Shown piece after piece: positions 1,069-30,093 of a stretch of DNA of 51,965 bases (the stretch's first letter is position 1; every line of letters begins with the position of its first letter). The position numbers were made by a program, and so were the translations under genes. Origin of the DNA: a bacterium (GTDB taxonomy: Bacteria > Ratteibacteria > UBA8468 > B48-G9 > DTJG01); contig JAKPDB010000005.1 of assembly GCA_029552985.1 (NCBI GenBank), positions 1 through 51,965 on the forward strand, in the 5' to 3' direction. Under the pieces are notes generated by a model. The model was not told where the DNA came from. It did no database searches and was given only the letters and a program-made list of their open reading frames with translations.

Positions 1069-1071
1069 ATG

Positions 1072-1878: not shown

Positions 1879-1907
1879 TTGAAGAGAGAAATTTTTTGTG
1901 GTAATTT
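1879..1907 (+). promoter_or_regulatory. Candidate promoter for the URO-D/glycosidase unit, possibly leaderless
   Basis: TTGAAG at 1879-1884 and TAATTT at 1902-1907 are separated by 17 bases. A start about 7 bases after the -10 would fall at 1914, only three bases before the ATG at 1917. No Shine-Dalgarno sequence precedes that ATG. The -10 match is moderate. Confidence 0.4.
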
Positions 1908-1916
1908 AATAAAATT

Positions 1917-2930: not shown

Positions 2931-2938
2931 GAGCAAAG

Positions 2939-4372: not shown

Positions 4373-5015
4373 ACTTGTAACGTTGCTGCGCAAACAATGG
4401 CCTGATAACAGAACTGTGAATATTGTCTGTCATGGCCACAGTGTGCCTGCTGGATATTTTGCCACTCCACATGTTGACACATTCAATGCCTATCCGCATT
4501 TGCTACATAAAAAACTCAAAGAAAGATTTCCTTTTGCTGTTATCAATGTGATTGTGAGTGCAATCGGTGGAGAAAATTCCATTTCAGGAGCAAAGAGATT
4601 TTCTCAGGATGTATTGTGTCATAAGCCAGATCTTGTTCTAATAGATTATGGACTTAATGACAGAAACCTTGATGCCAGTTCTGTCCAAAATGCATGGAGG
4701 GGGATGGTAAACCAGGCAAAAGAAAAAAATACAGCAGTGATGTTGTTAACTCCAACATGGGATTTTTCTGTTGTTGACCCCCAGCAGGAGTTTGGCAAAC
4801 TTCTTAGAAGGCAGGCAGAAATTATCAGAACACTGGCATCCGATGAAGAAGTGGCGCTTGCTGATAGTTTTTCTGCTTTTGAAAAAGCAGTTTCAAGTGG
4901 AGTTCCTCTCGAAGCATTGATGAGCTGGATTAATCATCCTTCAAGGAAAGGACACGAGATTGTTGTGGATGAAATACTCGGTTGGTTTCCACTTTCATTA
5001 ACACAAAGAATATAA
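4338..5015 (+). CDS. SGNH/GDSL-type hydrolase (esterase)
   Basis: The start is taken at 4338 (MALANRK), where GGAG at 4326-4329 gives proper spacing; the open frame extends further upstream only inside the previous gene. The 225-residue product has the SGNH blocks: block I CHGHSVPAG with S35 (GHS in place of the usual GDS), G78 in SAIGGEN, N107 in DYGLND, and a C-terminal INHPSRKGHE with H200. The Asp expected three residues before that His is a Trp (W197), so the enzyme would work as a Ser-His dyad or use another acid. Such enzymes remove acetyl groups from carbohydrates, including O-acetylated sialic acids. The neighbouring hexosaminidase supports that reading, but the substrate is inferred. 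Confidence 0.75.
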   Translation: MALANRKTYLAELVTLLRKQWPDNRTVNIVCHGHSVPAGYFATPHVDTFNAYPHLLHKKLKERFPFAVINVIVSAIGGENSISGAKRFSQDVLCHKPDLVLIDYGLNDRNLDASSVQNAWRGMVNQAKEKNTAVMLLTPTWDFSVVDPQQEFGKLLRRQAEIIRTLASDEEVALADSFSAFEKAVSSGVPLEALMSWINHPSRKGHEIVVDEILGWFPLSLTQRI

Positions 5016-5016
5016 G

Positions 5017-6660: not shown

Positions 6661-6661
6661 A

Positions 6662-7339
6662 TCAATCAGAAGAATTTTCCCAGTACATTCTGCTTGTGAA
6701 TACGTGGTAGTCCTTATATGCAAGATTCAGAACCTTCTGCCCGTAATTGTATGTGTGCCAGAAACAACGAACAATTGGTAATGTGTCAGAAAGTCCTTGA
6801 TAACTTGCCTGCCAGAGTTTTGCCTCTTTCCATGAGACCTTTCCGTCCCTATTGGTGTCTGCCTGATTTAAGTCAGTATCAGTATATGTGCCACTTGCAT
6901 ATCCCTGCATAAACCATTCACAGGTACATGGGCTGAACTCATAAATATAGCTGCAGGCTGTCACGTTGGGATTTCTGTAGGCAAATTCAGGTTCATAAGG
7001 TGGACTATAACCCGGTATCTGACTTGGTGGAATGTCGTTGCCACCAGGAAATTGAGGATTGCCATGACCTGTGATACCTCTGTATCTGTCTGTCAGGCAT
7101 ATGAAAATTTTGTCTGTTGCAAGGTAGGATGGAACCATAATTGAAAGCCAAGTTGGATAATCATCATAGTCCTGGTAGTACATTTCCATTGCAATTCCAA
7201 TCTGATGAAGATTGTTGATGCAGTTTGCCTGTCTTCCCTTTTCTCTCGCAGTTGATAGCGATGGCATAATCTGACCCGCGAGCATGCTGATGATCGCAAT
7301 CACCACCAGCAGTTCAACAAGAGTGAATCCTCGTTTCAT
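6662..7339 (-). CDS. Type II secretion-like pseudopilin (DUF1559 style) with EF-hand loop
   Basis: This 225-residue protein opens with a textbook prepilin leader, MKRGFTLVELLVVIAIISML, to be cut after Gly4 with Glu at mature position 5. The next segment, EKGRQANCINNLHQIGIAME, is the N-terminal helix typical of DUF1559/H-X9-DG pseudopilins common in Planctomycetes and Lentisphaerae. At about 168-180 it carries DTNRDGKVSWKE, a complete EF-hand-type calcium loop (D1, N3, D5, G6, E12). It would be processed by a prepilin peptidase and sit in the periplasm or on a pseudopilus. Its ATG overlaps the upstream HEAT gene by 4 bases (ATGA), so the two are translationally coupled. Confidence 0.85.
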   Translation of the reverse strand: MKRGFTLVELLVVIAIISMLAGQIMPSLSTAREKGRQANCINNLHQIGIAMEMYYQDYDDYPTWLSIMVPSYLATDKIFICLTDRYRGITGHGNPQFPGGNDIPPSQIPGYSPPYEPEFAYRNPNVTACSYIYEFSPCTCEWFMQGYASGTYTDTDLNQADTNRDGKVSWKEAKLWQASYQGLSDTLPIVRCFWHTYNYGQKVLNLAYKDYHVFTSRMYWENSSD

Positions 7340-8040
7340 TTGTTCTTCTCCTTTTGTTTGATACTTTCAAGGGTATGTTTTGCTGCTTCCTTCATTTCCA
7401 TATCCGGATCATTGTAATAAATAGCATTTAACCTACCTTCAAGCTCCATTGTTCCTGTATCTTTAAGAATATTGAGTGCCTGAAACCTGATTTCTTTATT
7501 TTCATCTTTGTTTTCTGCAATTTCCATCAAACTTTCATTAAAGTCTGGTTTCTTCAATGATTCAACGGTGCTAAGAATTTTTTTCCTTGTTTCTATGTCT
7601 TCAGTATTAAATCGTTCCATCATATATGAGACGTTATTTTTGTCTAATTTGATTAGTGCATCCATCGCAATATTTTTAATTTCTGTATCATTGGAGTCAA
7701 GCAGTTTTACTAATCTATTAATGTCAATTCTTCCTAAGGACCAGGCAGCAACCCTTTTTACCTTGATTTCAGGGTCCTGTTTTATCATGTTTTCAAGGGT
7801 ATCAGCCATTTCCTTAACCCTGTAAAGCCCCACAGTGTATACGCCTGTTTGTCTTTGAGCAGGGTCTTTACTACGAATCTGCTTCATGTAGTTTTCTATG
7901 GTTGGATTTTTGCTGGTTGTTGCTCTATAAATAGTTCTTCCTATGGCGAAGAGAGAAAGTAAAATCACTGCAAAACAAATCCAGAAAATGATTCTGTTTT
8001 TTTGTGATAGTCCCCTGTAAAACACCTTAATCCTGTTCAT
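7336..8040 (-). CDS. HEAT-repeat protein with N-terminal membrane anchor
   Basis: This 234-residue protein has a basic N-terminus, one hydrophobic segment at about 17-36 (RIIFWICFAVILLSLFAIG), and then a series of roughly 30-residue alpha-helical repeats of HEAT/PBS-lyase type, for example VYTVGLYRVKEMADTLENMI, RVAAWSLGRIDINRLVKLLD and RFQALNILKD. Such solenoids mediate protein contacts; no catalytic residues are seen. It is coupled by a 4-base overlap to the pseudopilin gene, which suggests the two act together at the envelope. It has its own promoter and appears to be translated from a leaderless message (see 8047-8075). Confidence 0.8.
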   Translation of the reverse strand: MNRIKVFYRGLSQKNRIIFWICFAVILLSLFAIGRTIYRATTSKNPTIENYMKQIRSKDPAQRQTGVYTVGLYRVKEMADTLENMIKQDPEIKVKRVAAWSLGRIDINRLVKLLDSNDTEIKNIAMDALIKLDKNNVSYMMERFNTEDIETRKKILSTVESLKKPDFNESLMEIAENKDENKEIRFQALNILKDTGTMELEGRLNAIYYNDPDMEMKEAAKHTLESIKQKEKNK

Positions 8041-8046
8041 AGTTTT

Positions 8047-8075
8047 ATTCTACCGGGTCATTTTGATTCTGTCAA
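8047..8075 (-). promoter_or_regulatory. Near-consensus promoter giving a leaderless message for the HEAT-repeat gene
   Basis: On the minus strand TTGACA (8075-8070) and TAGAAT (8052-8047) are separated by exactly 17 bases. Six bases then lead to the ATG at 8040, so a start 7 bases past the -10 coincides with the A of the ATG. No Shine-Dalgarno sequence exists. The -35 box contains the TGA stop (8074-8072) of the upstream SGNH gene. Confidence 0.65.
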
Positions 8076-9094
8076 CACCTGGTAAGAACCTGCTTGAGTT
8101 TTATAGCAAAAATATGATCCGGGATTCTGATAAGATGTGAGATTGCCCATTTTTTGCTTTTTTCTATTATTTTGCTATCCTGCGAATTAAAAATTTTTTC
8201 AGCAGCCATAAATCCTGATGTAAGACATTGTACTACTTGTGCCTCGTTTTTGATTTTTTCATCTTCTGCGTACGCAATCGCTCTGCGGCTTGTGGATTTT
8301 GTTTTCTCAAGCATCAATCTTTTAAGATTGGAGTTCTCTGAAAGATATTCTTTCAGATTTCCATTTTTCAGTGATTGGATGCATTCAATATAAACTGGGT
8401 TAAGGATTGCCTGTTCAAGATATGTTTCTGCATTTGATGGGATTTGATGAATTTGAGAAATCAGTGGTTGAATGATTGGAACAATGTGTTCAGCAAAAAA
8501 TTCGTTTCCCTGTTCAGTAAGGTGGACTCCATCCTTCAAAATCAGTTTTTCTCTTAATTCAGAGTTTTTCGAGAGATGTTGGTGATAGATTTTGTATCTG
8601 TCGTAAAGGAATAAATTTTCAATTCTTGCTGTTTCCCTGATAAACGAATGGCTGAAAAACTCAATATAATTTTCAAGTCCTCCATAAAATAAAGCTTTGG
8701 GATTGTTTCTCTGGCTATGCCACTCCTGGTCAAGAGTGGGGATAGTTTCAAGGATTATGTGCTGTGTGACATTTTTCTTAATCTCATTCAAAATTTTCCT
8801 GTAATATGTTTTGAATGTTTCCCTGTCAGGTGCCCTTATACTGTCGTTTGAGCCCAAACTTATTACCACGATATGCGGCTGATATGAGATACAGTCCCTT
8901 TCAATTCTTGTATACGCTTCTTCTGCTGTGTTCCCGCCATCGCCGCATGCAGCAACATCAACAATATACTGGTCAGGGCATATGTTTTGAATTTTTTCTT
9001 CAATGAAGTCAGCATATCTTTTGCCAATGGCTACCCCTGGAGACCACGACATTGAATCACCAAACAGAACAATCTGAAGAAATTTTTTTTCCAT
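8072..9094 (-). CDS. SGNH/GDSL hydrolase
   Basis: This 340-residue protein carries a complete SGNH set: block I VLFGDSMSW (S14), the Gly block in ACGDGGN, the Asn block SLGSNDS, and LKDGVHLTEQGNEF with the Asp and His of the catalytic triad. The catalytic domain fills about residues 1-210. A helical C-terminal extension of about 125 residues (from ETYLEQAIL onward) is unlike standard esterases. No signal peptide is visible, so it is likely cytoplasmic. The probable role is removal of acyl groups from sugars. The start ATG lies 2 bases after the stop of the secreted GH42-like gene, placing it in the same operon; it is unrelated in sequence to the shorter SGNH gene at 4338. Confidence 0.85.
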   Translation of the reverse strand: MEKKFLQIVLFGDSMSWSPGVAIGKRYADFIEEKIQNICPDQYIVDVAACGDGGNTAEEAYTRIERDCISYQPHIVVISLGSNDSIRAPDRETFKTYYRKILNEIKKNVTQHIILETIPTLDQEWHSQRNNPKALFYGGLENYIEFFSHSFIRETARIENLFLYDRYKIYHQHLSKNSELREKLILKDGVHLTEQGNEFFAEHIVPIIQPLISQIHQIPSNAETYLEQAILNPVYIECIQSLKNGNLKEYLSENSNLKRLMLEKTKSTSRRAIAYAEDEKIKNEAQVVQCLTSGFMAAEKIFNSQDSKIIEKSKKWAISHLIRIPDHIFAIKLKQVLTRC

Positions 9095-9096
9095 TG

Positions 9097-12000
9097 TTAT
9101 TTCATTAAAATGAAGTCAAAAACATCAAGCGGTACCTTTGTTGTCACAATTTTTGTTTTTGAGTCCTGAATGAATTGCAATGAACCTTTTTGAGCAGAAA
9201 TTACTGATGAAACAGGCATTTTTGCATCAATGTGCACAGTGATTTCATTTAGCGGTGATCCTGAATAGTTTGAAAGCACAATACCTATTCCCTGAATGCT
9301 TTCAAGCAAATCTGCCTGAACACAGTCCGTAGAACACCAGACAGGTCTTTGAATTCCGCAACCAAGAACAAAGTCAGTGATAATTCTTCTTTCATTTTCC
9401 CTGTAACCGGTTTCAATTTTTCCGGGTATCCTTTCAACAGGACTGTTGTAGGAATGTCCCACATAAGTGCCAGCATAAAATACACTGCCTTTTCCATATC
9501 TGTATTCAATCATTGCTGGTCTATTATCTTCCCAGACACCTATGACTTTTGTTTTCTCTGGATTTCTCAAAGAAAAAAGAATTTTTCTTCCGACTGCTGG
9601 GATTGTTTCATCTGATTGAATAATTCTTATAGTACCAGGAATGATAGATGGATTAACTCCGTTTTGTGGATTCATCGACCTTCCTATTGCACTATCAACC
9701 ACTGTGATGTCTTTAATTCCAATGACAGGCAAAAGCAATTCGCAGGGCTGACCATATTCATCTCCTGTTGCTGGAATGCCATCAATCCACAGGTTTCCAC
9801 CTTTTGATACCCAATCAGCAATCGCCTTTTTTGTAGATTTTCTCAGGTATTGACTTGTTAATATAGCGACTCGATACTGGTTTAATACGTTCTGTTCCAC
9901 CATAAATTCATCAATAAAATCCACTGGAATTTGCTTGTGCTGCAAAGCAAGATAGAGCAACTGCTGATTCCACATACTGGCATCATCTGTTGCCCACACT
10001 GGCTCACTTGCAGACCATATAATGGCAACTTCTGCTTTTCTGGGTTTTCCAGAAAAAAGAATGTCTTCTGCTTTTTCAAGCACTCTGGTGAAATGCGAGA
10101 TGCCCTGTACCATATCAGTGCTGCCAGACCAGTTGTCAGGAGACCAGTAAGCAGGACCATACCTGTACACATCAATTTTCTTTGCGCCTTTTCCAATTAC
10201 AGATGCAAGTTTCAACTGAATATTTTCCTTGCCACTTACTGGCATCACAAATGCGCTGACATCAGCATTATTTAACCTGGCGCAACTTTTGCTAAGATCC
10301 ACAAGAAAAGAAACCATCTGAATACCAGCATTTCTCCAACCAGATGTATTGAGCCAGTCCTCGTTCCAAAAATCAGTGACACTGTTCTGCCTTGCAAATT
10401 CCCATATTTCTGCCCCACGCATATACGAGCAATATCCATACGCCCACGGTGGGCCAAAGTTTACCCTTACTTTTACAGAAGGCATTCTCTTTATAATTTC
10501 ATCTGCAAGAATGCTATAAACTTTTGCTGTAGCATAGTTCCAGTAGCGAAGTGTCCAGTAATAATTGATGCACGAGTCAACAGCAGTTCTGTCAGAAGGC
10601 CTCATCTGCCAGGAATTCCTCCAGCTCCATGAACCATATATTTTCACATCGTCCCAGTTTTTTTTGTTTAAATCCGATGGTTTTAATCCCTGTGACTTAA
10701 TGTATTGTTTATATCCCTGTTCGTATTCAATACCTCCAAATAGTTCGCCCGCAATTTCATCTCCAGTATCAATAAACTTGATGATCGGTATCTGGTCAGG
10801 GTCCTGTTTTTTCAAATTTTCAATGGTATTTTCAACAAACTGCGAACATGCCTGCCTGATTTTTGTCAGGTCGAAAATCACAGCTTTGCTTGTAGGGTCC
10901 TGTGGTAATCTTCCGATTCTGAATGTGTGGTGTGTTTGCGCCATGTGATATTTTTCTGCCATCTGTCTATAAACTCCTGCAAGCCCTGAATACTGAGTGT
11001 CGAGCGCATTGAAACCCATAGTATGTAATGTATCAACTTCTGTTTCCACCATCACCGGATCAGAAAACACTGACCCGAATCCTTTAAGATGGGCTTCCAG
11101 ATAAAATTTCTTGAGGCTAACAGGTGGTAAATTCAGGGATTTTACAAATTGATTTCTTTTGATAATATCCTGGTCAAGAAGTGCAAAGCTCTTTGAAAAA
11201 TCATCAGGATTATTCTCAGATTTTGGCATCATCACGCCGATAATATTCCCTGGCGTTTTTCTTGTAAAACTTTTAATGATGCAGGACTCATCCGGCATAT
11301 AGGCAAAATCAATACTTGCCTCAATCATCTCAAACTTTTCTCCCTGAACAGGTTCAAAATGAAATCCAGCATAAACAGTGCCTCTTCCCTTAAACTGGTC
11401 ATAAGTGGATAAATCAATCCAGCCGCTTGAAGTGTTTGATAAAAATGTTTCTTTTGGAGCAATTGTAAAATACCAATTTGGTGGTCCATAAAGACCATGA
11501 ATTCTTACTTTGTACTTTGTATTTTCAGGTTGAAGCAATTTGAACCTGACATATTCTCCATATTCTTTCAATTCATAAACCTTGATATCGTCAAAATATA
11601 CTGTTCCAATACCATTTGCTTCAAGACGCAGTTCGCAGTATGAAATGGCCGGGTCAGGATTTTTTGGTTCGCCAAACCCACGACTGTGTCTTCCTCCAAC
11701 AAAAGTGACACCTGCTGTTGTCCAGTCAGAATCAGGACCAACTCTGTTTGCGTATGGTTCTCCGATTGCGCCATATACAACCCTGAACGTTCCTGTAATC
11801 TGGCCGGTGGTTTTGATTTTTGTGCTGATGTAATACTTTTTCCCTTTTTCAACCTGGAATGAACGGGGTACATAAGTATATGTCCTTTTGTTCAAAGTAA
11901 TGGCAAATGAATACTGACCTTCATAGGCAACATTTTCAAAGGAATAGATTACGTCTGGAGGTGGCTGTTTTTTTTCAGTTGGTCTGATATTCCAGCCAGT

Positions 12001-15012: not shown

Positions 15013-17649
15013 TTATTTGTAATAACTGTCTTCGGTTTCATCAAACCTTGAACTATTCAAGAAAAATGAGTTTCCAGCACCTCCGGTAGTGATTGAAAAA
15101 TTCTCGCTTTCACTTGAAATTTTGTTGTTTGAAGTAGATATGATTTTTATTTTATAGTCAGAGCCATCTTTTAATGTTGAAGGGATTTTCCATGACAGGT
15201 ATCCTGTACCTGAGGAACCAATAGTTTTTGTTGCTATTAAACCAGTAAAACATGTTCCTTTAAAAAGTTCAATTCTTACAAAATTGCCAGGATTTCCCTG
15301 GTATGTCCAGACAATATTTTTTGTTTCACCCTTTCTCCATATCTCTCCACCAGATGGAGAGACCAGTTTGATTGAGCCAGCAGAAATTGTGAAATCATCA
15401 TCGCTTGTATCTGTTATAGATGCATCAGATATTGAAGTTAATCTGATTTTGTAACCTTGGGATGCCTGCCACGATGAAGGAATATACCACAGGAAACTTC
15501 CTGAATTTCCACTGCAATACACATGACCGATTGTCGTTGCTGTATAATCCTTCATGCACTCAATTTTGAAATAAGTCGGGGATGATCCAGAATATATCCA
15601 GGTAATTTTTTGGGTTGTTCCTGAATACCAGATCTCACCACCATTGGGACTTGTGACTGTAACTGAAGGACCAGTAATAGTAAATGGTTCGCTGATTCCG
15701 AAAATACTTGAGTTTATTTTGCTTGATACCCTTATTGAATAATCGTCTCCAGCTGCAATGGTTGATGGGATATACCATACATATGAGCCTCTGCCATTTA
15801 TTCCTGCAGACGCTGAAGATGCAATGGTGCTGACAAAGTTATTTGATTTCAATAATTCAACCTTTATATAACTACCTGTATTGCCAGAAGCAGTCCACTG
15901 AATAATCTGGCTGGTTCCTTTTGAAAACTTTATTCCTGAACCAGGATGACTTACTGTGATTTTCCCGGCAATAATTGAAAATGTCGCGTCAGATGTATCT
16001 GTAATAACGGGATTTGAAATACTTGTGATGCGAATTTTATAGTCGTCTCCAGTACTGATCGTTGTAGGAATTTTCCAGTTGTAAAAGCCGGTACCGCCGG
16101 TTCCAATTGATATGCCAGAAGCAATAATAGAAACAACCCTTTCATTTTTCATCAGTTCAAGTTTTACATTGCCACTTAAAGAGCTGCTATAATTCCATCT
16201 GATGGTTTGTCTACTACCCTGCTCCCATATTTCGCCGCTATTGGGGCTTGTTAATTCCAGGCCTGAACCAGTTCCATATACTTTGATGCATACATTTGTA
16301 CCAGGTATTGACATCGTAATGTCTGACCAGTTGATACCGTCTTTGCTGACAAAACTCTGTCCTGGCAGGGCAGTGGCTTTGCTGCTATATCCTGAAATTG
16401 GCATTTCCACAGGGATGGGATAATTGTGGCCAGGTGTTTTCAATCTTACAATAGCAGAGAACTTTTCATCCTTTATCACAGGCACGCCGGTTGCTAACTT
16501 TATTGTGTGGTATCCAGGGTCTTCAATTGTTCCACTTTCCACTGTGGCGCAAATTCCATCAATAGGGGAAAACGAAACATTCTTGTAGATTTTTATCTCA
16601 TACTGGCTGTGTGTGACAGGGGTGTAAAATCCAACTGCTTCAATAAGTTCTGATGCTTGCCCTTTGTATATGTTGGCAAAATGTGCTGTATCATTTCCAT
16701 AACCTACAGATGTGACCCAACCAAGAGGGTCGTATTGATATATTGAATTGTAATTGTTAACAGGTTCTGCATTATTGAACACCACACAGTTTTTACCAAT
16801 ATTTGAATCATAATATGAAATATAAAAATATCCTGATTCTCCCCACAAAGAGCCCCAGCTATTTTTTACAATAAAAGCACCGTCGCCAGGTGGTATTCCT
16901 GAAGCGCTTCCATAAAAATTGGTCCTGCTATAATTATCAATCCACCCAACAATTGAAACAGCATGATTTGATGTGGCATAGCCATTGTAATAGTAATTTT
17001 TACCCTTCGCAAGGTATGCGTTGTTGTAATACATTGTTGTGTATATTGCTCCATACTTCATCACCGCTTGTTTGATAGCATCATTGCCTGTGGCACTTTT
17101 TCTGTCAGGAATAAATACAACTTCCTGGACATGCTTTACTGGTTGTAGATTTTCTGGCGAAGAAGTGGAACTTGCATTATACGGGTCAAGTAGTTCTGGA
17201 ATTGGGCCAGACCATCTTACCAGATATGCAGTTGAAATAAACTGATTTCCACCATCAGATGCTTTTCTATCAAAACCTTCTGCATAGGAAGAACTCAAAG
17301 CATTTTTCATGTGGTTTTCTGAAAAATCCCATGATTCATTATTGGAAAGAAGATATGACTCCAATGATGAGTAAGTGGCAAAAGCCCAGCAACTTCCAGC
17401 AGTACCCTGGTCTTTCACAGGGCTTACCCTTTTATATGAGCGCAGGTCAAATGAAGAAGGCGCTGAAGAATATAGCGCAGCAGGTAAAGAGAAAGGAGCA
17501 GGTATTTCTAATTGCGATTGCTGGTTTGATTGAGAATATTTTACAAAGTCAGGGTTCAATGGTGCAATTTCAATGGTTGCTGAAAAGACGCATATTGAGA
17601 AAAGTAAAATTGAAAGTGTACCAGTGAGACAAAATTTTTTTCCTGGCAT
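15013..17649 (-). CDS. Secreted papain-like (C1A) cysteine peptidase with four C-terminal Kre9/Knh1-like repeats
   Basis: The start at 17649 follows AAAAAGGAGAATATC and gives 878 residues. A signal peptide (MPGKKFCLTGTLSILLFSIC, then VFSA) precedes a short linker. The peptidase domain (about 64-275) has the full papain set: Q81 and C87 in QGTAGSCWAF, H229 in SNHAVSIVGW and N263 in VKNSWGSLWG. A beta-rich domain (about 290-440) resembles the lectin-like domain found after some bacterial C1A peptidases. Four repeats of about 100 residues follow, each starting like LTSPNSGEIW and ending near DYKIRITS. Only a very short propeptide is possible. It would cut extracellular protein, plausibly glycoprotein, since the operon encodes sugar-removing enzymes. 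Confidence 0.85.
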   Translation of the reverse strand: MPGKKFCLTGTLSILLFSICVFSATIEIAPLNPDFVKYSQSNQQSQLEIPAPFSLPAALYSSAPSSFDLRSYKRVSPVKDQGTAGSCWAFATYSSLESYLLSNNESWDFSENHMKNALSSSYAEGFDRKASDGGNQFISTAYLVRWSGPIPELLDPYNASSTSSPENLQPVKHVQEVVFIPDRKSATGNDAIKQAVMKYGAIYTTMYYNNAYLAKGKNYYYNGYATSNHAVSIVGWIDNYSRTNFYGSASGIPPGDGAFIVKNSWGSLWGESGYFYISYYDSNIGKNCVVFNNAEPVNNYNSIYQYDPLGWVTSVGYGNDTAHFANIYKGQASELIEAVGFYTPVTHSQYEIKIYKNVSFSPIDGICATVESGTIEDPGYHTIKLATGVPVIKDEKFSAIVRLKTPGHNYPIPVEMPISGYSSKATALPGQSFVSKDGINWSDITMSIPGTNVCIKVYGTGSGLELTSPNSGEIWEQGSRQTIRWNYSSSLSGNVKLELMKNERVVSIIASGISIGTGGTGFYNWKIPTTISTGDDYKIRITSISNPVITDTSDATFSIIAGKITVSHPGSGIKFSKGTSQIIQWTASGNTGSYIKVELLKSNNFVSTIASSASAGINGRGSYVWYIPSTIAAGDDYSIRVSSKINSSIFGISEPFTITGPSVTVTSPNGGEIWYSGTTQKITWIYSGSSPTYFKIECMKDYTATTIGHVYCSGNSGSFLWYIPSSWQASQGYKIRLTSISDASITDTSDDDFTISAGSIKLVSPSGGEIWRKGETKNIVWTYQGNPGNFVRIELFKGTCFTGLIATKTIGSSGTGYLSWKIPSTLKDGSDYKIKIISTSNNKISSESENFSITTGGAGNSFFLNSSRFDETEDSYYK

Positions 17650-17666
17650 GATATTCTCCTTTTTCA

Positions 17667-17697
17667 ATTATTTTCAACACATCTGGCAATATGTCAA
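17667..17697 (-). promoter_or_regulatory. Candidate promoter before the peptidase gene
   Basis: TTGACA (17697-17692) and AATAAT (17672-17667) on the minus strand, separated by 19 bases, lie just after the stop of the nitrilase gene. The -35 is perfect but the spacer is long, so this is a possible internal promoter rather than a sure one. Confidence 0.35.
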
Positions 17698-17702: not shown

Positions 17703-18560
17703 TCACTCAGTGATCTTTCTATAAATTGATGGTCTTCTGTATCTTGGGTGAAACAGTTCATCTGACCTTCTCTTGACAAGGGTTTCTGCTTTAAGAGTGT
17801 GAACGACCATCTGTTCGTCTGTCTGACCTGCAGGGGTTTCTGCTTCTATTTCTCCAAACGGATTAATAATGATGACCAGTGGCGGGCCGTAGTATTCAAC
17901 TCCCTTTTCGCTTATTCCGCCACAGGAGTTAATCGTAATGTGATACACACCGTTTTGCCACGCAACTGCCCTGAAATTGATCATCGCAAGTTCTCTCCAG
18001 GCATAATAAGATTTTTGTGGATCTGTTTTAATATCAGTTTCCCAGCACATGTAAAATGGCGCGACAATGATTTCTGCGCCATTGAGATAGGACAATCTTC
18101 CTGATTCACAGAACCAATTATCAAAGCATATATTTACACCAACCATTGCCTTCCTGGTTTTAATCACTGTAAACTCATTACCTGATGTTTCAATGGTATA
18201 TTCAAGTGGCGGGATATGGGTTTTCCTATACCTTCCCAGCAGTCCTTCAGGCGAAACAAAGACATAGGTGTTTCTGAGAAGGTCTGATTGGTCTTTTTCC
18301 GCAATCCCAAATCCGATTGTGATATTAAATGATTTTGCGACTTCTATCATTTTTTGGGTTGAGGGACCATTAAATGGTTCGCTTGCCTGAAAAAAATTCC
18401 TGTCAAAACAAAAACCAGTAACACTCATTTCAGGAAAAAGACACCAGTCAACATCATATTTTGTTGCCTTTTCTATCCATTTGACATGTCTATCTATATT
18501 TTGTTCTGGACTTGCAGGTTTGCTGATCATTGAGATGGCAGCAATCTTAATATCTTCCAT
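17703..18560 (-). CDS. Carbon-nitrogen hydrolase (nitrilase superfamily)
   Basis: The start at 18560 has an AAGGAGAAATC site; the longer frame upstream has no site of its own. The 285-residue protein shows the Glu-Lys-Cys triad of the superfamily: E44 in CLFPEMSVTGF, K113 in GRYRKTHIPP and C145 in GVNICFDNWF. Members hydrolyse amides or nitriles, or transfer acyl groups; the conserved length and triad fit an amidase of the ureidopropionase/N-carbamoylase type. The product is cytoplasmic. It lies 19 bases after the NagA-like gene and 53 before the peptidase gene. Amide cleavage next to an amidosugar deacetylase suggests handling of N-linked or amide-linked glycan parts, but this is inference. 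Confidence 0.8.
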   Translation of the reverse strand: MEDIKIAAISMISKPASPEQNIDRHVKWIEKATKYDVDWCLFPEMSVTGFCFDRNFFQASEPFNGPSTQKMIEVAKSFNITIGFGIAEKDQSDLLRNTYVFVSPEGLLGRYRKTHIPPLEYTIETSGNEFTVIKTRKAMVGVNICFDNWFCESGRLSYLNGAEIIVAPFYMCWETDIKTDPQKSYYAWRELAMINFRAVAWQNGVYHITINSCGGISEKGVEYYGPPLVIIINPFGEIEAETPAGQTDEQMVVHTLKAETLVKRRSDELFHPRYRRPSIYRKITE

Positions 18561-18579
18561 GATTTCTCCTTGTTGCAAT

Positions 18580-19878
18580 TTAAATAATTTTCTGGCCTCT
18601 GACGAAAACAGAATCAATTTTTAATGCGTAATTGCCTGGTTTTCCTTTTATTTCTGCAATAACAAGGTCAGCAAATTTTCCGTCTTTCAATTCTCCTGTG
18701 TTCAGGTCATCTCCATGATTTTTCTTAATCATACGGACGATATTTGTTGAACAGCAGGATGAAGTGATGCAGAGCGCCTTTTCAAAATCCATTGCTGGAT
18801 GATTTGTGTGCCAGATTCCTGGCATTTGTCTTGTAAGATAGGATAGCAGATTTGAAAAAACCCTATCAATTGTTGCCATACTTCCATAAAGTGTTGTGGG
18901 CCCTGTTTTTGTGACATAGACATATCTGTGTTTGCTGTCTACAGTGCCACCAATTCCATCACATTCAAACTGTTTAATTCCCTTTGTCTGGCTTACAAAA
19001 ACAGCATCTGTGATTGCCATAATATCTGACGGTTCTTTTCTTGCGAAAACTTCTCTGATGTACCACGGAGCAACATGATATCCATCAACAATGAGTTCAA
19101 GCATGATATCAAGGGTTAACGCTGCTTCAAGAGCACCTCCGCCATAAAAACTTTTGTAGAGATTACCGGTTGGACCATTGAGAAAGTGAATAAAATATTT
19201 CAGTCCAGCAGACACTGCTTCTTTGAATTGCTCACATGTTGCAGATGTATGACCTGCGCCCACTGAAATGCCTTTTGAAACAAGGTATTCAATAAGTTTG
19301 ACAGATTTTTTGCCGTGGTCAGGTGGGACATTAACCAATCTTGCGAGACCTGTTTCATTAATGTCATCAAAAATAGATTTTTCAGGTTCATATACATATT
19401 CTGGATTCATTGCTCCCTGATTTGCACGATTAATAAACGTTCCTTCAATCATGGCACCTGCATAAAATTTTCCTTCCCATGTGTCTCGATTTTGTTTGAT
19501 GAATTTTTCAAGTTCTCTGAGGGCAAATTTAATTTTCTCAAGCGGGATTGCCGCAGTTGAAGCATAAAGTCGAGTTGCTCCTGTTGATACACGAAGGTTT
19601 GCCCATTGTTTCAAACCTTCCTGATATATTTCGCTGGATTGTTCAAACCGTTGTTTTTTTACATTGTATCTACCAGCATAAAAAGAAAAAAGCCCGGCGC
19701 CATGCGTATGCAATTCAATGAAACCAGGAAACACATATTTTCCTTTTAAGTCAATAATTTGTTCATCCATCTTTTTATTCAGAGGTTTTTCAAGAGATAT
19801 TTTTTCATTTTTGATGACAATATCAACACCTTTTTTCAGCCCTGTTTCGAGGCATAGAATACCATTTGTCAATCTCAT
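18580..19878 (-). CDS. NagA-like amidohydrolase (N-acetylglucosamine-6-phosphate deacetylase family)
   Basis: This 432-residue amidohydrolase starts behind TGGGAGCAAAAA. All NagA landmarks are present: the H57-x-H59 metal site in FIELHTHGAG, metal-binding E145 in AMIEGTFIN, H210 in GAGHTSAT, H231 in HFLNGP (usually HLFNAM), H268 in DGYHV and the catalytic D291 in AITDA. NagA removes the acetyl group from GlcNAc-6-phosphate, feeding amino sugars into glycolysis. It is about 50 residues longer than E. coli NagA, mainly around 60-100. Expected partners (NagB, a GlcNAc kinase) are not in the window, so a related N-acylated sugar is also possible. It is the first gene of the long minus-strand series. 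Confidence 0.8.
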   Translation of the reverse strand: MRLTNGILCLETGLKKGVDIVIKNEKISLEKPLNKKMDEQIIDLKGKYVFPGFIELHTHGAGLFSFYAGRYNVKKQRFEQSSEIYQEGLKQWANLRVSTGATRLYASTAAIPLEKIKFALRELEKFIKQNRDTWEGKFYAGAMIEGTFINRANQGAMNPEYVYEPEKSIFDDINETGLARLVNVPPDHGKKSVKLIEYLVSKGISVGAGHTSATCEQFKEAVSAGLKYFIHFLNGPTGNLYKSFYGGGALEAALTLDIMLELIVDGYHVAPWYIREVFARKEPSDIMAITDAVFVSQTKGIKQFECDGIGGTVDSKHRYVYVTKTGPTTLYGSMATIDRVFSNLLSYLTRQMPGIWHTNHPAMDFEKALCITSSCCSTNIVRMIKKNHGDDLNTGELKDGKFADLVIAEIKGKPGNYALKIDSVFVRGQKII

Positions 19879-19933
19879 TTTTTGCTCCCATTTTTCTAAT
19901 CAGTTTAGAATCTTGATTACCAGCGAATAAAAT

Positions 19934-19962
19934 AGTATAACATTTCAGGCATATGGTGTGAA
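19934..19962 (-). promoter_or_regulatory. Promoter for the NagA-led operon
   Basis: Minus strand TTCACA (19962-19957), a 17-base spacer and TATACT (19939-19934), with an extended TG-T just before the -10. The predicted start is near 19927, leaving about 49 bases of leader with the GGGAG ribosome site. No operator repeat was recognised. Confidence 0.55.
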
Positions 19963-19988
19963 AAATTAAAATTTTACTGGAGATATTT

Positions 19989-21602
19989 TTGAATATTGCG
20001 CTAACAGGAATTGGTTGGAGAAAACAATTTGCGAAAGATGTTATCAAAAGGCTTGGAATTATCTTTAACCAGACCACCAGTGAAGATGCAGATATGGTCT
20101 TTGTTTGCAATTATAATCAGGTCTCATCTGATGAAATAAGATACTTAGTAAAAAATGGGAAAAATGTTATTTTTCTTCAGCCAGAAAAAGATTTGCTCAA
20201 TGTTTTTGGAAACGAGCTCATGTATACCTATCATTTCCCTTTGATGCAAATTGAGGGGCATTTACCGGTAACATTTCTTCAGGTTTTTCCTCCTGTTTCA
20301 TTAGTAAAACAGAAACACGGTGAAACAATCGGGTTGTTTGCTTTAGATTTTTCGTCTTCAGGTGAAAACTATACAACAGGATACCCTGCAATTTCGTGGC
20401 GGAAAATGGGAAGTGGGGCAATTGCCATGTTTTTTTACGATTTCATCAGTACGTTATTACTTCTTCTGCAGGGATGGGAATTTTTTACAGAAGAAGGCAG
20501 ACTTTCCAGGCAGTTTCGAACTGGTATTTCACGGGCGACTCATCTGGCCGATTATTTGATTTTGCGGCAGTTGTGCGAAATTCCGCAGGGATATTTTCAT
20601 GAAATACTTCTTCTAAAACTTATTAGAACACTGCTGGCAGGGAAAAATCCAGTACCACGAATATGGTATTATCCATATCCTGACACCACAGTGTTTCTTT
20701 TGAGCGGAGACAGTGATAACCTTGAAAAACATAATCTTGAGAAGGCATGGGAACTTATTGTTAATTCAGGTGCTGAGTATACACAGTATACAATGGTTGA
20801 TGATATCGGTTTGTTTTCAGAAAAAGAGTTATCCCAATGGAAACAAAAAGGTATTGATTTTGAGCTTCATTATTATGCGGGGCCATCACCTTCTTCTGAA
20901 GAGATGTTGCAGCATCTTGTGAAAGCAAAAAAAATGTTTCTTTCGAAGAAAATAAAAGTTGATTCATGCAGGGGACACAGTTTAATATGGACTGGCTGGG
21001 ACAAGCAAATAAAAATTATGGAAAAGGCAGGATTTTTGTTTTCTTCAAATCTACTTTACTGGTATCCAGGGATCAGTTATGGACTGCCTTATTATCTTTA
21101 TACCAATTCAGGAAAATCTTCAGTTCAGGAACTTCAAATTTTTGTTTCAGATGATGTGTGTCTATTTAATAAAAGTGGGCTATTGCCACTAACACCTCCA
21201 GTGTACTTAAAAAAAATCATTGCCTGGCTTGATATCAACAAAGACGTTTATTATCAACCATTCAACCCTATTTTCCATCCCTATTATCTTGTAAAACAAC
21301 CATCCACTCAGGAAGTTCTCAAGCAATCAATTATTCATGCAAAATCAAGCGGTATCCCGATAATGAATCATAGAAGGTTTTTTTCCTGGTGGAATAAGAG
21401 AGGTAGCATGAAACTGAAGTATCAATTGAATGATACCTGTGTGGAATTTTCCAGCGCAAGAACAGATGCAGAAACTGGAATTGCATTGCCTGAAACATGG
21501 GATGGTATGAAAATCACAGGCGGGGTTAAATTACAGACAACAGGAGAAATACTTTTTCCATTAAATTGCAGGAAAATTACTTATCAAAAGGGGGAAAAAT
21601 GA
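19989..21602 (+). CDS. Polysaccharide deacetylase-like (NodB/CE4-fold) protein with extra N-terminal domain
   Basis: Translation starts at a TTG, 6 bases after CTGGAGAT; no better start exists. The first 190 or so residues look like a Rossmann/glutamine-amidotransferase-like domain (MNIALTGIGW, DADMVFVCNY, VKNGKNVIFLQPEK). From about 225 the chain follows the NodB-type deacetylase pattern: FLLSGDSDNL with D241 and D243 in the metal-acid positions, LHYYAGPSPSSEEML, and DSCRGHSLIW with Arg and H330 where the family has R-x-P and metal His, ending in IPIMNHRRFFSWW. The metal His pair of true CE4 enzymes is not clearly complete, so activity is uncertain. It lacks a signal peptide. The next gene overlaps its stop (ATGA). 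Confidence 0.6.
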   Translation: MNIALTGIGWRKQFAKDVIKRLGIIFNQTTSEDADMVFVCNYNQVSSDEIRYLVKNGKNVIFLQPEKDLLNVFGNELMYTYHFPLMQIEGHLPVTFLQVFPPVSLVKQKHGETIGLFALDFSSSGENYTTGYPAISWRKMGSGAIAMFFYDFISTLLLLLQGWEFFTEEGRLSRQFRTGISRATHLADYLILRQLCEIPQGYFHEILLLKLIRTLLAGKNPVPRIWYYPYPDTTVFLLSGDSDNLEKHNLEKAWELIVNSGAEYTQYTMVDDIGLFSEKELSQWKQKGIDFELHYYAGPSPSSEEMLQHLVKAKKMFLSKKIKVDSCRGHSLIWTGWDKQIKIMEKAGFLFSSNLLYWYPGISYGLPYYLYTNSGKSSVQELQIFVSDDVCLFNKSGLLPLTPPVYLKKIIAWLDINKDVYYQPFNPIFHPYYLVKQPSTQEVLKQSIIHAKSSGIPIMNHRRFFSWWNKRGSMKLKYQLNDTCVEFSSARTDAETGIALPETWDGMKITGGVKLQTTGEILFPLNCRKITYQKGEK

Positions 21603-22618
21603 AGTCAAGAGAATTTTTTGAAATCAAACTTGGATTTATTAATCTTGTTAACAAAATTGGCTGGAAACAAGCCCTGCAAAGGTATAAAAAAGATTTTAAC
21701 ATTTCTGAAGATGATGCAAAGAAATGGTGGAAATGGTACGAAAATGAAATATGTGTGCCTGAAGTTTGCTATGAGTCAGACGCAGGGCCTCAGGCAATTA
21801 GAGGAGAAAAGGGCAAAGGAGAAAAGATTGAAAAATTACCCCTTATTGTGATAGGAGATATAGATGTTGAATTTATGGGTAGTGTTTATAGATTAACCAA
21901 TGAAGGACTTTACAGATTTTCAGTGATTACAAAAAGTGTGAGAAATCTTATTATAATAAAAAACAGGTATTCAGTGATACCGATATTGAAAGCAATTTCG
22001 TTGATGCAGATACATGGAAACAGAGACCAGTCAACAACATTGGAACAGAGGAAAACATTACTTCTCTCAAGGTACTGGATTTCGCTTGCCTGCGGTGATA
22101 TTTCTGCGCTGACAAAAGAGGTTCTTTCAGACGCAGGAATTGAATCACGACTTGTAAGTGCTCTAACTCTTGAGAACTGGAATACCTATAACAACGGGCA
22201 TGTTCTGGTTGAGGTATTTTTCCCTGATATATCCAGGTGGATTCTTGTTGATATTGATATGGGGTATTTATTTATGCATGACGGTGAACTGTTAAGTTCA
22301 TACTCATTCTGGAAATGCTTGAAAGAAAACAGGTACATTGTTTTTGTTCCGCTTTCGCAAAAAGAGATTGACCCACTATGGCTTGAAAACAACTACTATT
22401 CTTATGCTCACATGTGGCGAGTTATGGTGAGAGACCTCAATTCAAAACTTTCGTGGTATAAGAGAATATTTCAAACATTCGGATTTCAGGCAGAAGATAA
22501 ATTTATCTACATTGGCGATCGCGAAGATGCAAAAAGAATTATTGAATACAGAGGACATTATTCAACAACACTTCCTGAAAAAGAATTTATTGAAAAATTC
22601 TACTGTGAAAGGGGTTGA
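21599..22618 (+). CDS. Transglutaminase-like protein
   Basis: The start ATG overlaps the previous stop (ATGA) and follows AAGGGGGAAAA, giving 339 residues. The N-terminal 100 residues are charged and not recognised. The middle contains a Cys-His-Asp arrangement typical of the transglutaminase/arylamine-type cysteine fold: C165 in SLACGDISALTKEVL, H201 in YNNGHVLVEVFF and D218 in WILVDIDMG, with family-like spacing of 36 and 17 residues. The role of the fold here could be protein crosslinking, amide cleavage or a non-catalytic one. It has no signal peptide. Coupling to a deacetylase-like gene and a Gfo/Idh/MocA gene suggests one small pathway of unknown product. Confidence 0.6.
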   Translation: MKSREFFEIKLGFINLVNKIGWKQALQRYKKDFNISEDDAKKWWKWYENEICVPEVCYESDAGPQAIRGEKGKGEKIEKLPLIVIGDIDVEFMGSVYRLTNEGLYRFSVITKSVRNLIIIKNRYSVIPILKAISLMQIHGNRDQSTTLEQRKTLLLSRYWISLACGDISALTKEVLSDAGIESRLVSALTLENWNTYNNGHVLVEVFFPDISRWILVDIDMGYLFMHDGELLSSYSFWKCLKENRYIVFVPLSQKEIDPLWLENNYYSYAHMWRVMVRDLNSKLSWYKRIFQTFGFQAEDKFIYIGDREDAKRIIEYRGHYSTTLPEKEFIEKFYCERG

Positions 22619-22619
22619 A

Positions 22620-23810
22620 ATGAGAGAGAAAAAAGTAAGATGGGGTCTTATAGGACTCGGGCACAGGGCAAGAGGACTTGCCCATATTTATCACCATCTT
22701 GTTCCCAATAGCACTGTAGTTGCAGTGTGCGACAGAATAGAGACACTTGCCCACAAAACAAAAGAAATATTGAAAGATCCTGATATTGCCATCTATACAG
22801 ATCACAGGAAAATGTTGAAGGAATCTTTAATTGATGCAGTGAGTGTATTTGTCGCGCCAGAGCAAAATCCTGATATCGTATGTGAATGTCTTGAGGCAGG
22901 AAAACACGTATTATGTGAGGTGCCTCTGTCTCTTACGATGGAAGGTTGCTGGAAAGTTGTTATTACAGTTGAAAAAACAGGATTGAAATTTCAGATGGCA
23001 GAGCAGTTGAGATATGCGGCTTTCGTGAAAGCATGGAAAAAGATGATTGAAAAAGGATTACTTGGAAAAATTTTGTATTGCGAAGGGCAATACCTTCATG
23101 GAATGGGACCAGATAGATACTGGATGGATGCCGAAACAGGAGAAAAGGTTTCTATCAGTCAGGCGAAAAATTATCAAGGCAAACTTATGAAAACAAGATT
23201 CTGGAATTTGAAGCATCCGATATTTTATCTACCACACGAACTGAGTCCGCTATTGCATATTCTTGATGACAGGGTGGTGAAGGTCGTGGGGATGGCTACA
23301 AAATCACCAGGATACAGGTATGAATGGTTTCCTCAAGCAGATATTGAAGTGTCTTTAATGCACACAGAAAAGGATACTATATTACGGCTCATGGCGGGTT
23401 TTGTAATAGAAACACTTACTGGTAGCGAACACTGTAACCGTGTGATTGGTACGAAGGGCTGGGTGGAACAGCCGCGCACAAAATCTGAAAAAGGAAGAAT
23501 GTGGCTTTCAGACCACTTTATGTCAGATGCAGCAGAATTGGAATGGAATTACTCAAACTACTGGGAAAGTCCTTCTGTGGCTGCAGAAACTGGTCATGGT
23601 GGACTTGACTTTTATCCTGTTGCGAACATGGTTGAGGCAATTATTTATGACAGGCCGGTTGAAATGGATGTTTACAGAGCAGCGGAGACAGCAGCACCAG
23701 CAATTCTTGCAGGAATGTCAATAGAAAAAGATAGTATCCCCATAAATGTTCCTGACTTCAGGCCAGGGGAAAAAAGAAAACCGGGTACACTCCCAGAAAA
23801 ACTTTATTGA
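22620..23810 (+). CDS. Gfo/Idh/MocA-family oxidoreductase with Val in place of catalytic Lys
   Basis: The start at 22620 lies one base after the previous stop, with AAAGGGG as ribosome site, giving 396 residues. The N-terminal Rossmann domain has VRWGLIGLGHRARGLA (dinucleotide loop) and VVAVCDR. At the usual E-K-P catalytic motif it reads HVLCEVPLSL, so the lysine is V101. The C-terminal domain has the expected beta-sheet with HELSPLLHIL and GWVEQPR. Family members oxidise or reduce sugar hydroxyls with NAD(P). Loss of the Lys is seen in some family members and may mean a different chemistry, for instance a redox-assisted glycoside cleavage as in GH109-type enzymes. The specific substrate is unknown. 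Confidence 0.8.
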   Translation: MREKKVRWGLIGLGHRARGLAHIYHHLVPNSTVVAVCDRIETLAHKTKEILKDPDIAIYTDHRKMLKESLIDAVSVFVAPEQNPDIVCECLEAGKHVLCEVPLSLTMEGCWKVVITVEKTGLKFQMAEQLRYAAFVKAWKKMIEKGLLGKILYCEGQYLHGMGPDRYWMDAETGEKVSISQAKNYQGKLMKTRFWNLKHPIFYLPHELSPLLHILDDRVVKVVGMATKSPGYRYEWFPQADIEVSLMHTEKDTILRLMAGFVIETLTGSEHCNRVIGTKGWVEQPRTKSEKGRMWLSDHFMSDAAELEWNYSNYWESPSVAAETGHGGLDFYPVANMVEAIIYDRPVEMDVYRAAETAAPAILAGMSIEKDSIPINVPDFRPGEKRKPGTLPEKLY

Positions 23811-27995: not shown

Positions 27996-28213
27996 TCTTT
28001 GTGCTCTGACCATTCAGCGTCAAGAACTTTTCTGGAGTTTTTAGCAGATTCTGAACTACTGGATCGTTCCCATTTGATTACCATAAAATGCTTTCTTCTT
28101 CTGAAAAAAATCAGAGACAGAAGAAAAAAGAAGATGAGGATGACAACCAATAGTGCAAGAAGCAAAATTGGGGTCAAAAACAACCACATAAGAACTTTAG
28201 AAATTAACTCCAT
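27992..28213 (-). CDS. Small membrane protein
   Basis: This 73-residue protein has a long hydrophobic stretch (about 6-38, [20 protein letters not shown] then FFLLSLIFF) followed by RRRK and a charged, Ser-rich C-terminal tail, so the tail is probably cytoplasmic by the positive-inside rule. Its ATG overlaps the stop of the repeat-protein gene (TGATG), which indicates translational coupling and supports it as a real gene despite its size. No family is recognised. Confidence 0.55.
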
Positions 28214-30093
28214 CAGTCAATATCCATAAGGTATCCTGCACCGTTTTCTGTGCTTCTGTTATTGATGGCAGCAGAACGTTTTTTGCAGGAAAAACCATCA
28301 GAGCCACTGCCAAGGTCAATCAAAAAACTGAAGTTCCCACCAACAAGATTTTTGGGATGGTATTCAAGTGGTCCCGGGATACCCTGAACTCTATTTTCAT
28401 TATCGCCATCATACATATCAGAACCATTTCCATCAATAAGTATAGCCCATGAACCCTGACAGGCAAACCCCTGACCGCTGATTGTCGCAATATAGTGGTC
28501 ATCTCCTGCAAAATCCACAACACATGCTGTACCAATGTCCCAGCCAAATGCCTGAATTCCGAGTGTTCCAATATATGTATCATTTCCAGTATCATCGTAA
28601 AGAAGGCCTATCGCATAATGGCAGGCGTATCCAAATCCATATCTTGTAAAACTGTTTGTCAATGGTTTTCTGATATCATTTCCTCCAAAATCTCTGGCAA
28701 TGCCTGCTGCGAACCAGTATCCACCTGTTGAGAAATAATCTGCCTGGTACAAATCGTCTCCACCACCATCAAGCATGATGCCAAACCCACCATTTGAAAT
28801 TCCCCTGAATCCAGAACCACAACCCTGAGACCATGCGTGTTTATAGTAATGGGGTGGTTCCTGATATGGTTCATCGTATTTTCCACCAGCGATATAACAA
28901 TCATTACCTCTTGAATCTTCCAATATTCCAATTCCAAGCATGCCGCCATATCCCTGTCCGAAAAGATTCACTTTATACTGGTCATTTCCGTTTCTGTCAA
29001 TGAGAATTCCAATGCCACAGGTAGCGCTTCCCTGTCCCCGTCTATCTGCCACATAACAATCATTTCCCTCATCATCAACAAGGATACCAATGCCCATAAG
29101 GGCTGTGCCCTGGCAGACATCAGTGCCTTCATAGGTATCATTTCCTGTTCTATCGTACAAAATACAGATTCCAAAAAATCCTGACCCCTGAGCAAATCCA
29201 TCTTTTGCTATATATCTGTCATTTCCATCAAAATCAATGATAACAAGTACTGGTTTATCAGGACCTGTGGTTCCACCAATATAGGTGTCATGTCCACCAG
29301 GGTCAATGATACAGGAAATTCCTTTCAGTTTGTCAATATCATAGGTGTCATTTTTTTTACTTCCAACAAGAACCTTTTTGTATTCACCGGGTTTTAATTG
29401 TTTCAGGGATTCAAATTGAGAACTTTCAAATATCTCGCATAGCGCGATTGCTCCAGCAATCAATGAATCCATTTTTACTCTGTCAGCCATTGAACACATC
29501 GCAAGTCCTGTTTGTCTGTCAGAAAGAGAGTGAGCCACGGTATCGCCGACTTCCCTTACTGCAAGCCGCTGTGTGATTTCAATAAACTGCGTGAGTTTTT
29601 TTTGTGAAAAATCGCTGAACGCGTCTTTTACATATTTTTCCACAATGACAATCTGTCTGTTGACATAGTCAACTGGATTTTTTTCCTTTGTCGTCAGGCA
29701 AGAATTTGTCTCAAGTTTTATATCAAGAAGTTCAGCGCAGGTTTGAATCACCTGAGTAATGTTTCTAATACCTGGTTGACACTGCTGGTGTATTGTATTT
29801 GATAGTTGGTTCCCTTCTACAATACAATCAATTGGATTGCGAAGCCATCTGTCAATGATATTCAATCTGAAATACCCATTTTTGTCGTTCCACCAATTTG
29901 TTCCGTTCGTTTTATCAAGAATGTCTGATACATAATTTACATAGGATTGATACATTTGCCACTGGTGATTTTTTTCCAATGTATTAACTATCAGATTCTG
30001 TGCCCTTTGCACAATTTGCTCTGGTTGATTTTCTCCGCAATGTCCAGAGTAAAAAAACAGCGTAATAACGGACAGCAATAATTTCTTATTCAT
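28213..30093 (-). CDS. Exported protein with RTX-like D-x-x-G-N-D-x-Y repeats
   Basis: This 626-residue protein has a signal peptide (MNKKLLLSVITLFFYSGHCG). The first 240 residues are helical and unrecognised. From residue 264 to 601 at least twelve units carry a D-x-x-G-[NDSH]-D-x-Y core, for example DFDGNDRYIA, DRTGNDTYEG, DDEGNDCYVA and DSRGNDCYIA. Many cores are joined by a Gln-Gly and Gly-Ile-Gly-Ile-Leu segment, as in GQGSATCGIGILID. The core resembles the calcium-binding G-x-G-N-D-x-L half-repeat of RTX proteins, but the period is about 25-30 residues rather than 9. A calcium-stabilised beta solenoid is likely. The final residues overlap the start of the small membrane gene, and the first 8 bases overlap the phosphomutase gene. 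Confidence 0.65.
   Translation of the reverse strand: MNKKLLLSVITLFFYSGHCGENQPEQIVQRAQNLIVNTLEKNHQWQMYQSYVNYVSDILDKTNGTNWWNDKNGYFRLNIIDRWLRNPIDCIVEGNQLSNTIHQQCQPGIRNITQVIQTCAELLDIKLETNSCLTTKEKNPVDYVNRQIVIVEKYVKDAFSDFSQKKLTQFIEITQRLAVREVGDTVAHSLSDRQTGLAMCSMADRVKMDSLIAGAIALCEIFESSQFESLKQLKPGEYKKVLVGSKKNDTYDIDKLKGISCIIDPGGHDTYIGGTTGPDKPVLVIIDFDGNDRYIAKDGFAQGSGFFGICILYDRTGNDTYEGTDVCQGTALMGIGILVDDEGNDCYVADRRGQGSATCGIGILIDRNGNDQYKVNLFGQGYGGMLGIGILEDSRGNDCYIAGGKYDEPYQEPPHYYKHAWSQGCGSGFRGISNGGFGIMLDGGGDDLYQADYFSTGGYWFAAGIARDFGGNDIRKPLTNSFTRYGFGYACHYAIGLLYDDTGNDTYIGTLGIQAFGWDIGTACVVDFAGDDHYIATISGQGFACQGSWAILIDGNGSDMYDGDNENRVQGIPGPLEYHPKNLVGGNFSFLIDLGSGSDGFSCKKRSAAINNRSTENGAGYLMDID
28291..29304 (-). 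repeat. Coding repeat array of the solenoid protein
   Basis: Twelve recognisable protein repeats with the core D-x-x-G-N-D-x-Y. Two of them are degenerate (DGGGDDLY, DGNGSDMY) and one lacks the Tyr (DFGGNDIR). The DNA of the units is not strongly repetitive, so the array is old rather than recently amplified. Confidence 0.7.

What the first reader, a model, noticed from the sequence alone, without database searches (positions are those of the whole stretch)
19989..23810. Coupled cassette: deacetylase-like, transglutaminase-like and Gfo/Idh/MocA proteins
Three plus-strand genes with a 4-base overlap and a 1-base gap, none with a signal peptide. The first has an added Rossmann-like N-terminus, the second has a complete C165-H201-D218 triad, and the third has Val in place of the catalytic Lys. 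This combination is not one I recognise and may be a small uncharacterised pathway on amide- or acyl-bearing sugars.
Basis: inference. Interest (0 to 1): 0.65.

Follow-up and report, generated by a model that had tools for sequence, protein, structure and literature searches.

The report
Shortened amino-sugar operon with redox glycosidase
Three linked bacterial genes, probably the surviving end of a longer sugar-processing operon, encode one protein of an undescribed family, one transglutaminase-like enzyme and one enzyme resembling NAD-using sugar-cutting enzymes; together they may dismantle an acylated amino sugar inside the cell, but the substrate is unknown.

Summary
A (19989-21602), B (21599-22618) and C (22620-23810) lie as described, with the C165-H201-D218 triad and Val101. 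A-B-C is conserved in 3 other genomes of the genus and absent from 4; all three genes are under purifying selection. In two of those genomes it is the 3' part of a longer operon: DegT aminotransferase, Gfo/Idh, 435-aa protein, 377-aa protein, A-B-C, AraC regulator. A third genome keeps a broken DegT start in front of A, so its short form arose by internal deletion; the same is inferred for the window. The Val is not a lost active site: C is nearest to GH109 (NAD+-dependent glycosidases), and the positions of GH109's three proposed catalytic residues match (Tyr158, His206, His326 in a GHGG loop). A has no Pfam family; its N-terminus is GATase/DUF4350-like rather than Rossmann, and its deacetylase likeness is weak and atypical. 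Outside the genus A-like proteins follow DegT, twice preceded by a C-like enzyme; B is confined to four genomes. Best reading: a cytoplasmic module for deacylating and cleaving an N-acylated amino-sugar glycoside. Substrate and direction are inferred; structure prediction failed.

The parts
19989..21602 (+). Gene A, 537 aa: GATase/DUF4350-like N-terminus plus NodB-like (weak) C-terminal part; conserved G240-D241-x-D243 (20709-20717), H294 (20868-20870), H330 (20976-20978), W334
   Evidence: ORF; no credible Pfam, NCBIfam, PHROG, PADLOC or PDB match; hhalign to NodB puts motif 1 and motif 2 in register, P 0.008; motifs kept in 9 homologues
21599..22618 (+). Gene B, 339 aa: transglutaminase-fold cysteine enzyme, triad C165 (22091-22093), H201 (22199-22201), D218 (22250-22252)
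   Evidence: PF01841 23.4 bits against cut-off 23, 25.1 bits; triad invariant in 4 orthologues
22620..23810 (+). Gene C, 396 aa: Gfo/Idh/MocA protein of GH109 type; V101 (22920-22922), Y158 (23091-23093), H206 (23235-23237), H326 in TGHGG (23595-23597)
   Evidence: PF01408 and PF21252 above cut-off; best PDB matches GH109 6t2b and 2ixa; residue mapping
19879..19988 (.). Divergent spacer between the NagA-like gene and A; holds a TATAGTATAACA-type element at the same distance from the NagA-like gene as in G008
   Evidence: it may simply be the promoter of the NagA-like gene on the minus strand
18580..19878 (-). NagA-like amidohydrolase, divergent neighbour (flank, not part of the unit)
   Evidence: TIGR00221 109 bits, below cut-off 225.65; also present next to the same gene in G005 without A-B-C
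17703..18617 (-). Carbon-nitrogen hydrolase, downstream of the NagA-like gene (flank)
   Evidence: PF00795 126 bits
23816..25057 (-). Second Gfo/Idh/MocA protein, convergent with C (flank); keeps Lys (CVKP)

Best explanation
A-B-C is the 3' remainder of an operon that handles an N-acylated amino sugar or its glycoside in the cytoplasm. SHOWN: gene order and conservation; the long form with DegT aminotransferase and an EKP-type Gfo/Idh in G008 and G006; deletion of the front of the operon in G009; presence of the GH109-type residue positions in C and of the triad in B. INFERRED: in the window's species the short form also arose by deletion. C binds NAD+ tightly, oxidises C3 of the sugar with His326 as base, uses Tyr158 at C2 and His206 at the leaving group, and re-reduces, giving net glycosidic cleavage (or delivers a 3-keto sugar). 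A removes an N-acyl group with a metal site built on Asp241/243, His294 and perhaps His330. B hydrolyses a second amide with its Cys-His-Asp triad. In the long form DegT and the EKP-type Gfo/Idh then interconvert amino, keto and hydroxyl at the ring carbon, as NtdA and NtdC do in kanosamine metabolism. Where those genes are lost, the module would stop after deacylation and cleavage or use paralogues elsewhere.
For: C: GH109 nearest in PDB, PF21252 above cut-off, Y158/H206/H326 present in all orthologues and C-like proteins examined, absent at the GHGG position from the EKP-type Gfo/Idh of the same operon. Recurring A + DegT + C-like set in G007 and G016, DegT + A in G001. Long form with AraC regulator and no glycosyltransferase or nucleotide-sugar gene recognised. 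Transglutaminase-like proteins sit beside relatives of the 377-aa protein in a LacI-controlled locus with glycosidase-like genes in G032. Purifying selection in the two short forms. G009 DegT remnant.
Against: No substrate evidence. The same three catalytic positions occur in many C-like proteins of the phylum that are not known to sit beside A, so they do not point to one reaction. H206 corresponds to a His also found in ordinary dehydrogenases (general knowledge). A lacks the second His of the usual NodB motif 2 and matches no NodB profile in Pfam. A distant A homologue lies in a polysaccharide-synthesis cluster in Sinorhizobium. B matches Transglut_core only at the cut-off, and its orthologues fall below it. 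Only four genomes carry B.
Confidence: 0.4

Rival explanations
1. The operon is biosynthetic: C (or the EKP-type Gfo/Idh of the long form) makes a 3-keto sugar, DegT aminates it, A trims an N-acetyl group and B adds or transfers an acyl or aminoacyl group, building a modified amino sugar for a surface polymer or a small secreted compound.
For: Gfo/Idh plus DegT pairs are classic makers of 3-amino sugars (NtdC/NtdA, PMC8788734). A distant A homologue sits among two DegT genes, an acyltransferase and a sugar transferase in Sinorhizobium. Transglutaminase-fold enzymes can transfer as well as hydrolyse (general knowledge).
Against: No glycosyltransferase or exporter recognised in the long operon; an AraC regulator is more usual for sugar use; C is GH109-like rather than WlbA- or NtdC-like; the Sinorhizobium homologue is a differently built protein with an Ig-like domain.
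Confidence: 0.25
2. The three genes are transcribed together but do separate small jobs: C is an ordinary oxidoreductase, B a cytoplasmic peptidase or amidase, A a metal-dependent hydrolase of unrelated substrate; the linkage is inherited, not functional.
For: All sampled A-B-C carriers are one genus, so linkage could be shared ancestry; G005 keeps the flanks and lacks the genes without replacement; B is absent from the A-DegT-C sets elsewhere.
Against: Overlapping or near-overlapping genes kept while synonymous sites became saturated; deletion in G009 spared exactly A-B-C with the A start intact; A and a C-like gene meet again in two other genomes.
Confidence: 0.2
3. The short form is a decaying leftover of the operon: after loss of DegT and the EKP-type Gfo/Idh the remaining genes have no function.
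For: The front half is missing in the window and G009 and the whole operon in G005; A and B evolve faster than the flanking genes.
Against: All frames are open in both short-form genomes, active-site residues are kept, and pN/pS is 0.22-0.42 for window against G009.
Confidence: 0.1

Closest known systems
GH109 NAD+-dependent glycosidases (AmGH109A 6t2b, E. meningoseptica 2ixa)
   Same: Gfo/Idh fold, no Lys in the stretch that reads EVP here (EVP in 6t2b), Tyr, His and GHGG-loop His in the same alignment positions
   Different: Distant local similarity only; loop reads TGHGG, not GGHGG; partner genes A and B are not part of GH109 systems described in the papers found; no activity known
Kanosamine operon NtdCAB/KabCAB of Bacillus (PMC8788734)
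   Same: Gfo/Idh dehydrogenase plus DegT-type aminotransferase acting at C3 of a sugar, as in the long form and the G007/G016 sets
   Different: Window copy has no DegT gene at the locus; A and B replace the phosphatase; C is GH109-like rather than NtdC-like
NodB/CE4 polysaccharide deacetylases (PF01522)
   Same: Asp-rich first motif and LH motif of A align in register
   Different: No Pfam match; second His of HxxxH absent in the window's clade; an extra conserved His330; extra N-terminal domain
Transglutaminase-like superfamily (PF01841)
   Same: Cys-His-Asp triad with the usual spacing in B
   Different: Long N-terminal part without a match; borderline score; no signal peptide seen

Membership tests
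GH109 (protein C) | Gfo/Idh N-terminal domain and GH109 C-terminal domain profile | tested here: inconclusive
   PF01408 68.6 bits; PF21252 31.1 bits, over the cut-off of 27, in the window protein, but 20.0 bits, below it, in the G008 orthologue
GH109 (protein C) | Catalytic His in conserved GGHGG loop, Tyr for C2, His for the leaving group | tested here: met
   H326 in TGHGG, Y158 and H206 align with His404, Tyr226 and His259 of AmGH109A; first loop residue differs
GH109 (protein C) | NAD+-dependent glycosidase activity | not testable with these tools
   needs purified protein
Ordinary Gfo/Idh dehydrogenase (protein C) | EKP catalytic Lys | tested here: not met
   EVP in all orthologues; the EKP-type control in the same operon keeps Lys
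NodB/CE4 deacetylase (protein A) | PF01522 match | tested here: not met
   no Pfam match to it in A or any phylum homologue; weak hhalign only
NodB/CE4 deacetylase (protein A) | Asp-His-His metal site with HxxxH motif 2 | tested here: not met
   D241/D243 and H294 present, second His absent in the window's clade; another ligand (H330) is possible but untested
Transglutaminase-like (protein B) | PF01841 above cut-off | tested here: inconclusive
   23.4 against 23 in the window; 19.6 and 17.3 in orthologues
Transglutaminase-like (protein B) | Cys-His-Asp triad | tested here: met
   C165, H201, D218 invariant in 4 orthologues
NtdCAB-like amino-sugar operon | DegT aminotransferase beside Gfo/Idh | tested here: not met
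   absent at the window locus; present in G008, G006, G007 and G016

The most novel reading that the evidence does not exclude
A new cytoplasmic amino-sugar route in which a metal-dependent deacylase of an undescribed family (A), a transglutaminase-fold amidase (B) and a GH109-type redox glycosidase (C) act together with a DegT aminotransferase and an EKP-type dehydrogenase, removing acyl groups, the glycosidic bond and the amine through a shared 3-keto intermediate.
Probability: 0.2. Interest if true: 0.6.

Novelty: new variant of a known kind. Interest (0 to 1): 0.38.

Why it matters
If right, it gives a function to a protein family (A) that the profile libraries searched here do not name, although homologues reach from a candidate phylum to Sinorhizobium megaplasmids. 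It would also extend redox glycosidases to a setting with a cytoplasmic transglutaminase-type amidase. The G008, G009, window and G005 series is also a useful case of operon reduction, which shows which genes can be kept without the others.

Tried and rejected
AlphaFold2 models of A and B from the only alignments allowed (3 sequences each) were unusable (pLDDT 38.6 and 37.5), so no fold search was made. PDB sequence and profile searches for A and B found nothing credible. Viral contigs, PHROGs and PADLOC gave nothing, so a phage or defence origin has no support. Plasmids gave no B. Searches outside the phylum were not possible with whole genomes, so the range of B is a lower bound. Considered and rejected: C as a dead dehydrogenase (GH109 residue positions are kept); A-B-C as an insertion into the NagA/Gfo site in G009 (its DegT remnant shows deletion; for the window and G005 the direction is not proven); the conserved TATAGTATAACA element as the operon promoter (it also fits the minus-strand NagA promoter). 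Paper searches for this gene combination found none.

Full report
Setting. The window is one contig of a 2.2-Mb draft genome in a small phylum of which 35 genomes were searched. The two related public records are labelled Candidatus Omnitrophota MAGs. The group may be the candidate phylum Ratteibacteria; that is a guess from knowledge, not tested.

Observation.

Conservation. A-B-C is found in G006, G008 and G009 of the same genus and missing from G003, G004, G005 and G007 (G007 has only a distant A relative); a profile search of the phylum found no further B. Several of these genomes are incomplete, so an absence in any one of them is not certain. Window against G009: amino-acid identity 57% (A), 63% (B), 74% (C); pN 0.29, 0.23, 0.17 against pS 0.70, 0.74, 0.77. 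All three genes are therefore constrained, A and B less than the flanking genes.

Context. In G008 the genes are the end of a longer run on one strand: DegT aminotransferase, Gfo/Idh with the usual EKP, a 435-aa protein without a family, a 377-aa protein with propeller-like relatives, A, B, C, then an AraC regulator. G006 carries the same long form split over two contigs. In G009 the stretch in front of A reads MKRREIPFISMGGLYQQDDLEAATNVIKAV, the start of that DegT protein; the DNA aligns with score 59 where 200 shuffles reach 17 at most. So the G009 short form is a deletion product. In the window no remnant is left, but the spacer keeps a short element at the same distance from the NagA-like gene as in G008; deletion is inferred, not shown. 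G005 keeps the same flanking genes with only 212 bp between them.

Wider linkage. A profile of A found relatives in G001, G007 and G016, about 22-24% identical to the window protein. In each the A-like gene directly follows a DegT gene; in G007 and G016 a C-like gene precedes DegT. The three DegT proteins are 68-70% alike and only 27-35% like the G008 one, so this is a parallel set rather than the same operon. Its three carriers share ancestry in the order, so they are not independent counts. B is absent from these sets. Transglutaminase-like proteins do occur next to relatives of the 377-aa protein in a LacI-controlled locus with glycosidase-like genes in G032; they resemble B only over the core.

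Protein C. Its best PDB matches are GH109 enzymes. Tyr226, His259 and His404 of AmGH109A, assigned roles in PMC10755693, align with Y158, H206 and H326. All C-like proteins examined keep these three, while the Lys position reads EVP, EIP, EQT or DCP. Val101 is therefore normal for this branch. Because so many paralogues share the pattern, it supports a mechanism class, not a substrate.

Protein A. No profile library names it. The N-terminal part resembles a class I glutamine-amidotransferase-like domain: DUF4350 is detected there in a distant homologue, below Pfam's cut-off. The rest aligns weakly with NodB at the correct motifs. G240-D241, H294, H330 and W334 are invariant in nine homologues from two phyla, which argues for an active site. 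The usual second His of NodB motif 2 is missing in the window's clade, so it is not filed as a CE4 member.

Mechanism. The most economical reading is deacylation (A, perhaps B) and redox-assisted cleavage (C) of an N-acylated amino-sugar glycoside, with DegT and the EKP-type Gfo/Idh of the long form interconverting amino, keto and hydroxyl groups, as in NtdA/NtdC (PMC8788734). The direction (use or synthesis) is open; regulator type and absence of recognisable glycosyltransferases favour use.

Verdict. Real, conserved and, as far as the papers and libraries searched show, undescribed as a combination. The parts are variants of known kinds, apart from family A, which is unnamed in the libraries searched. 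Moderate interest.

Noticed in passing
L027 (G009:C139) about 498-630: Remnant of the start of the DegT aminotransferase gene in front of A, a fossil of an operon-internal deletion.
   Followed up: yes
L083 (G032:C148) 1000-10536: LacI-regulated locus with two transglutaminase-like proteins, two propeller proteins (one 46% identical to the 377-aa protein of G008) and two glycosidase-like proteins; looks like an uncharacterised sugar-use locus.
   Followed up: partly
L008 5942-7249: 435-aa protein with no family match, found only in the long-form operons of G008 and G006; contains GLSDFDSR, which recalls a nucleotidyltransferase motif.
   Followed up: partly
window 15013-17667 (-): Secreted-looking 884-aa papain-family protease with a lectin-like domain and repeated Kre9/KNH Ig-like domains.
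   Followed up: no
window 28213-30093 (-): 626-aa protein with many G-N-D-x-Y type repeats and a signal-like start; conserved in the genus with unknown function.
   Followed up: no
window 18580-19878 (-): NagA-like amidohydrolase far below the NagA cut-off, overlapping the following C-N hydrolase gene by 38 bases; present in some but not all genomes of the genus.
   Followed up: partly
L029, L030, L031 (alphaproteobacterial plasmids): Distant homologues of A annotated only as 'Ig-like domain-containing' or hypothetical proteins; the Sinorhizobium one sits in a polysaccharide-synthesis cluster with two DegT genes.
   Followed up: partly
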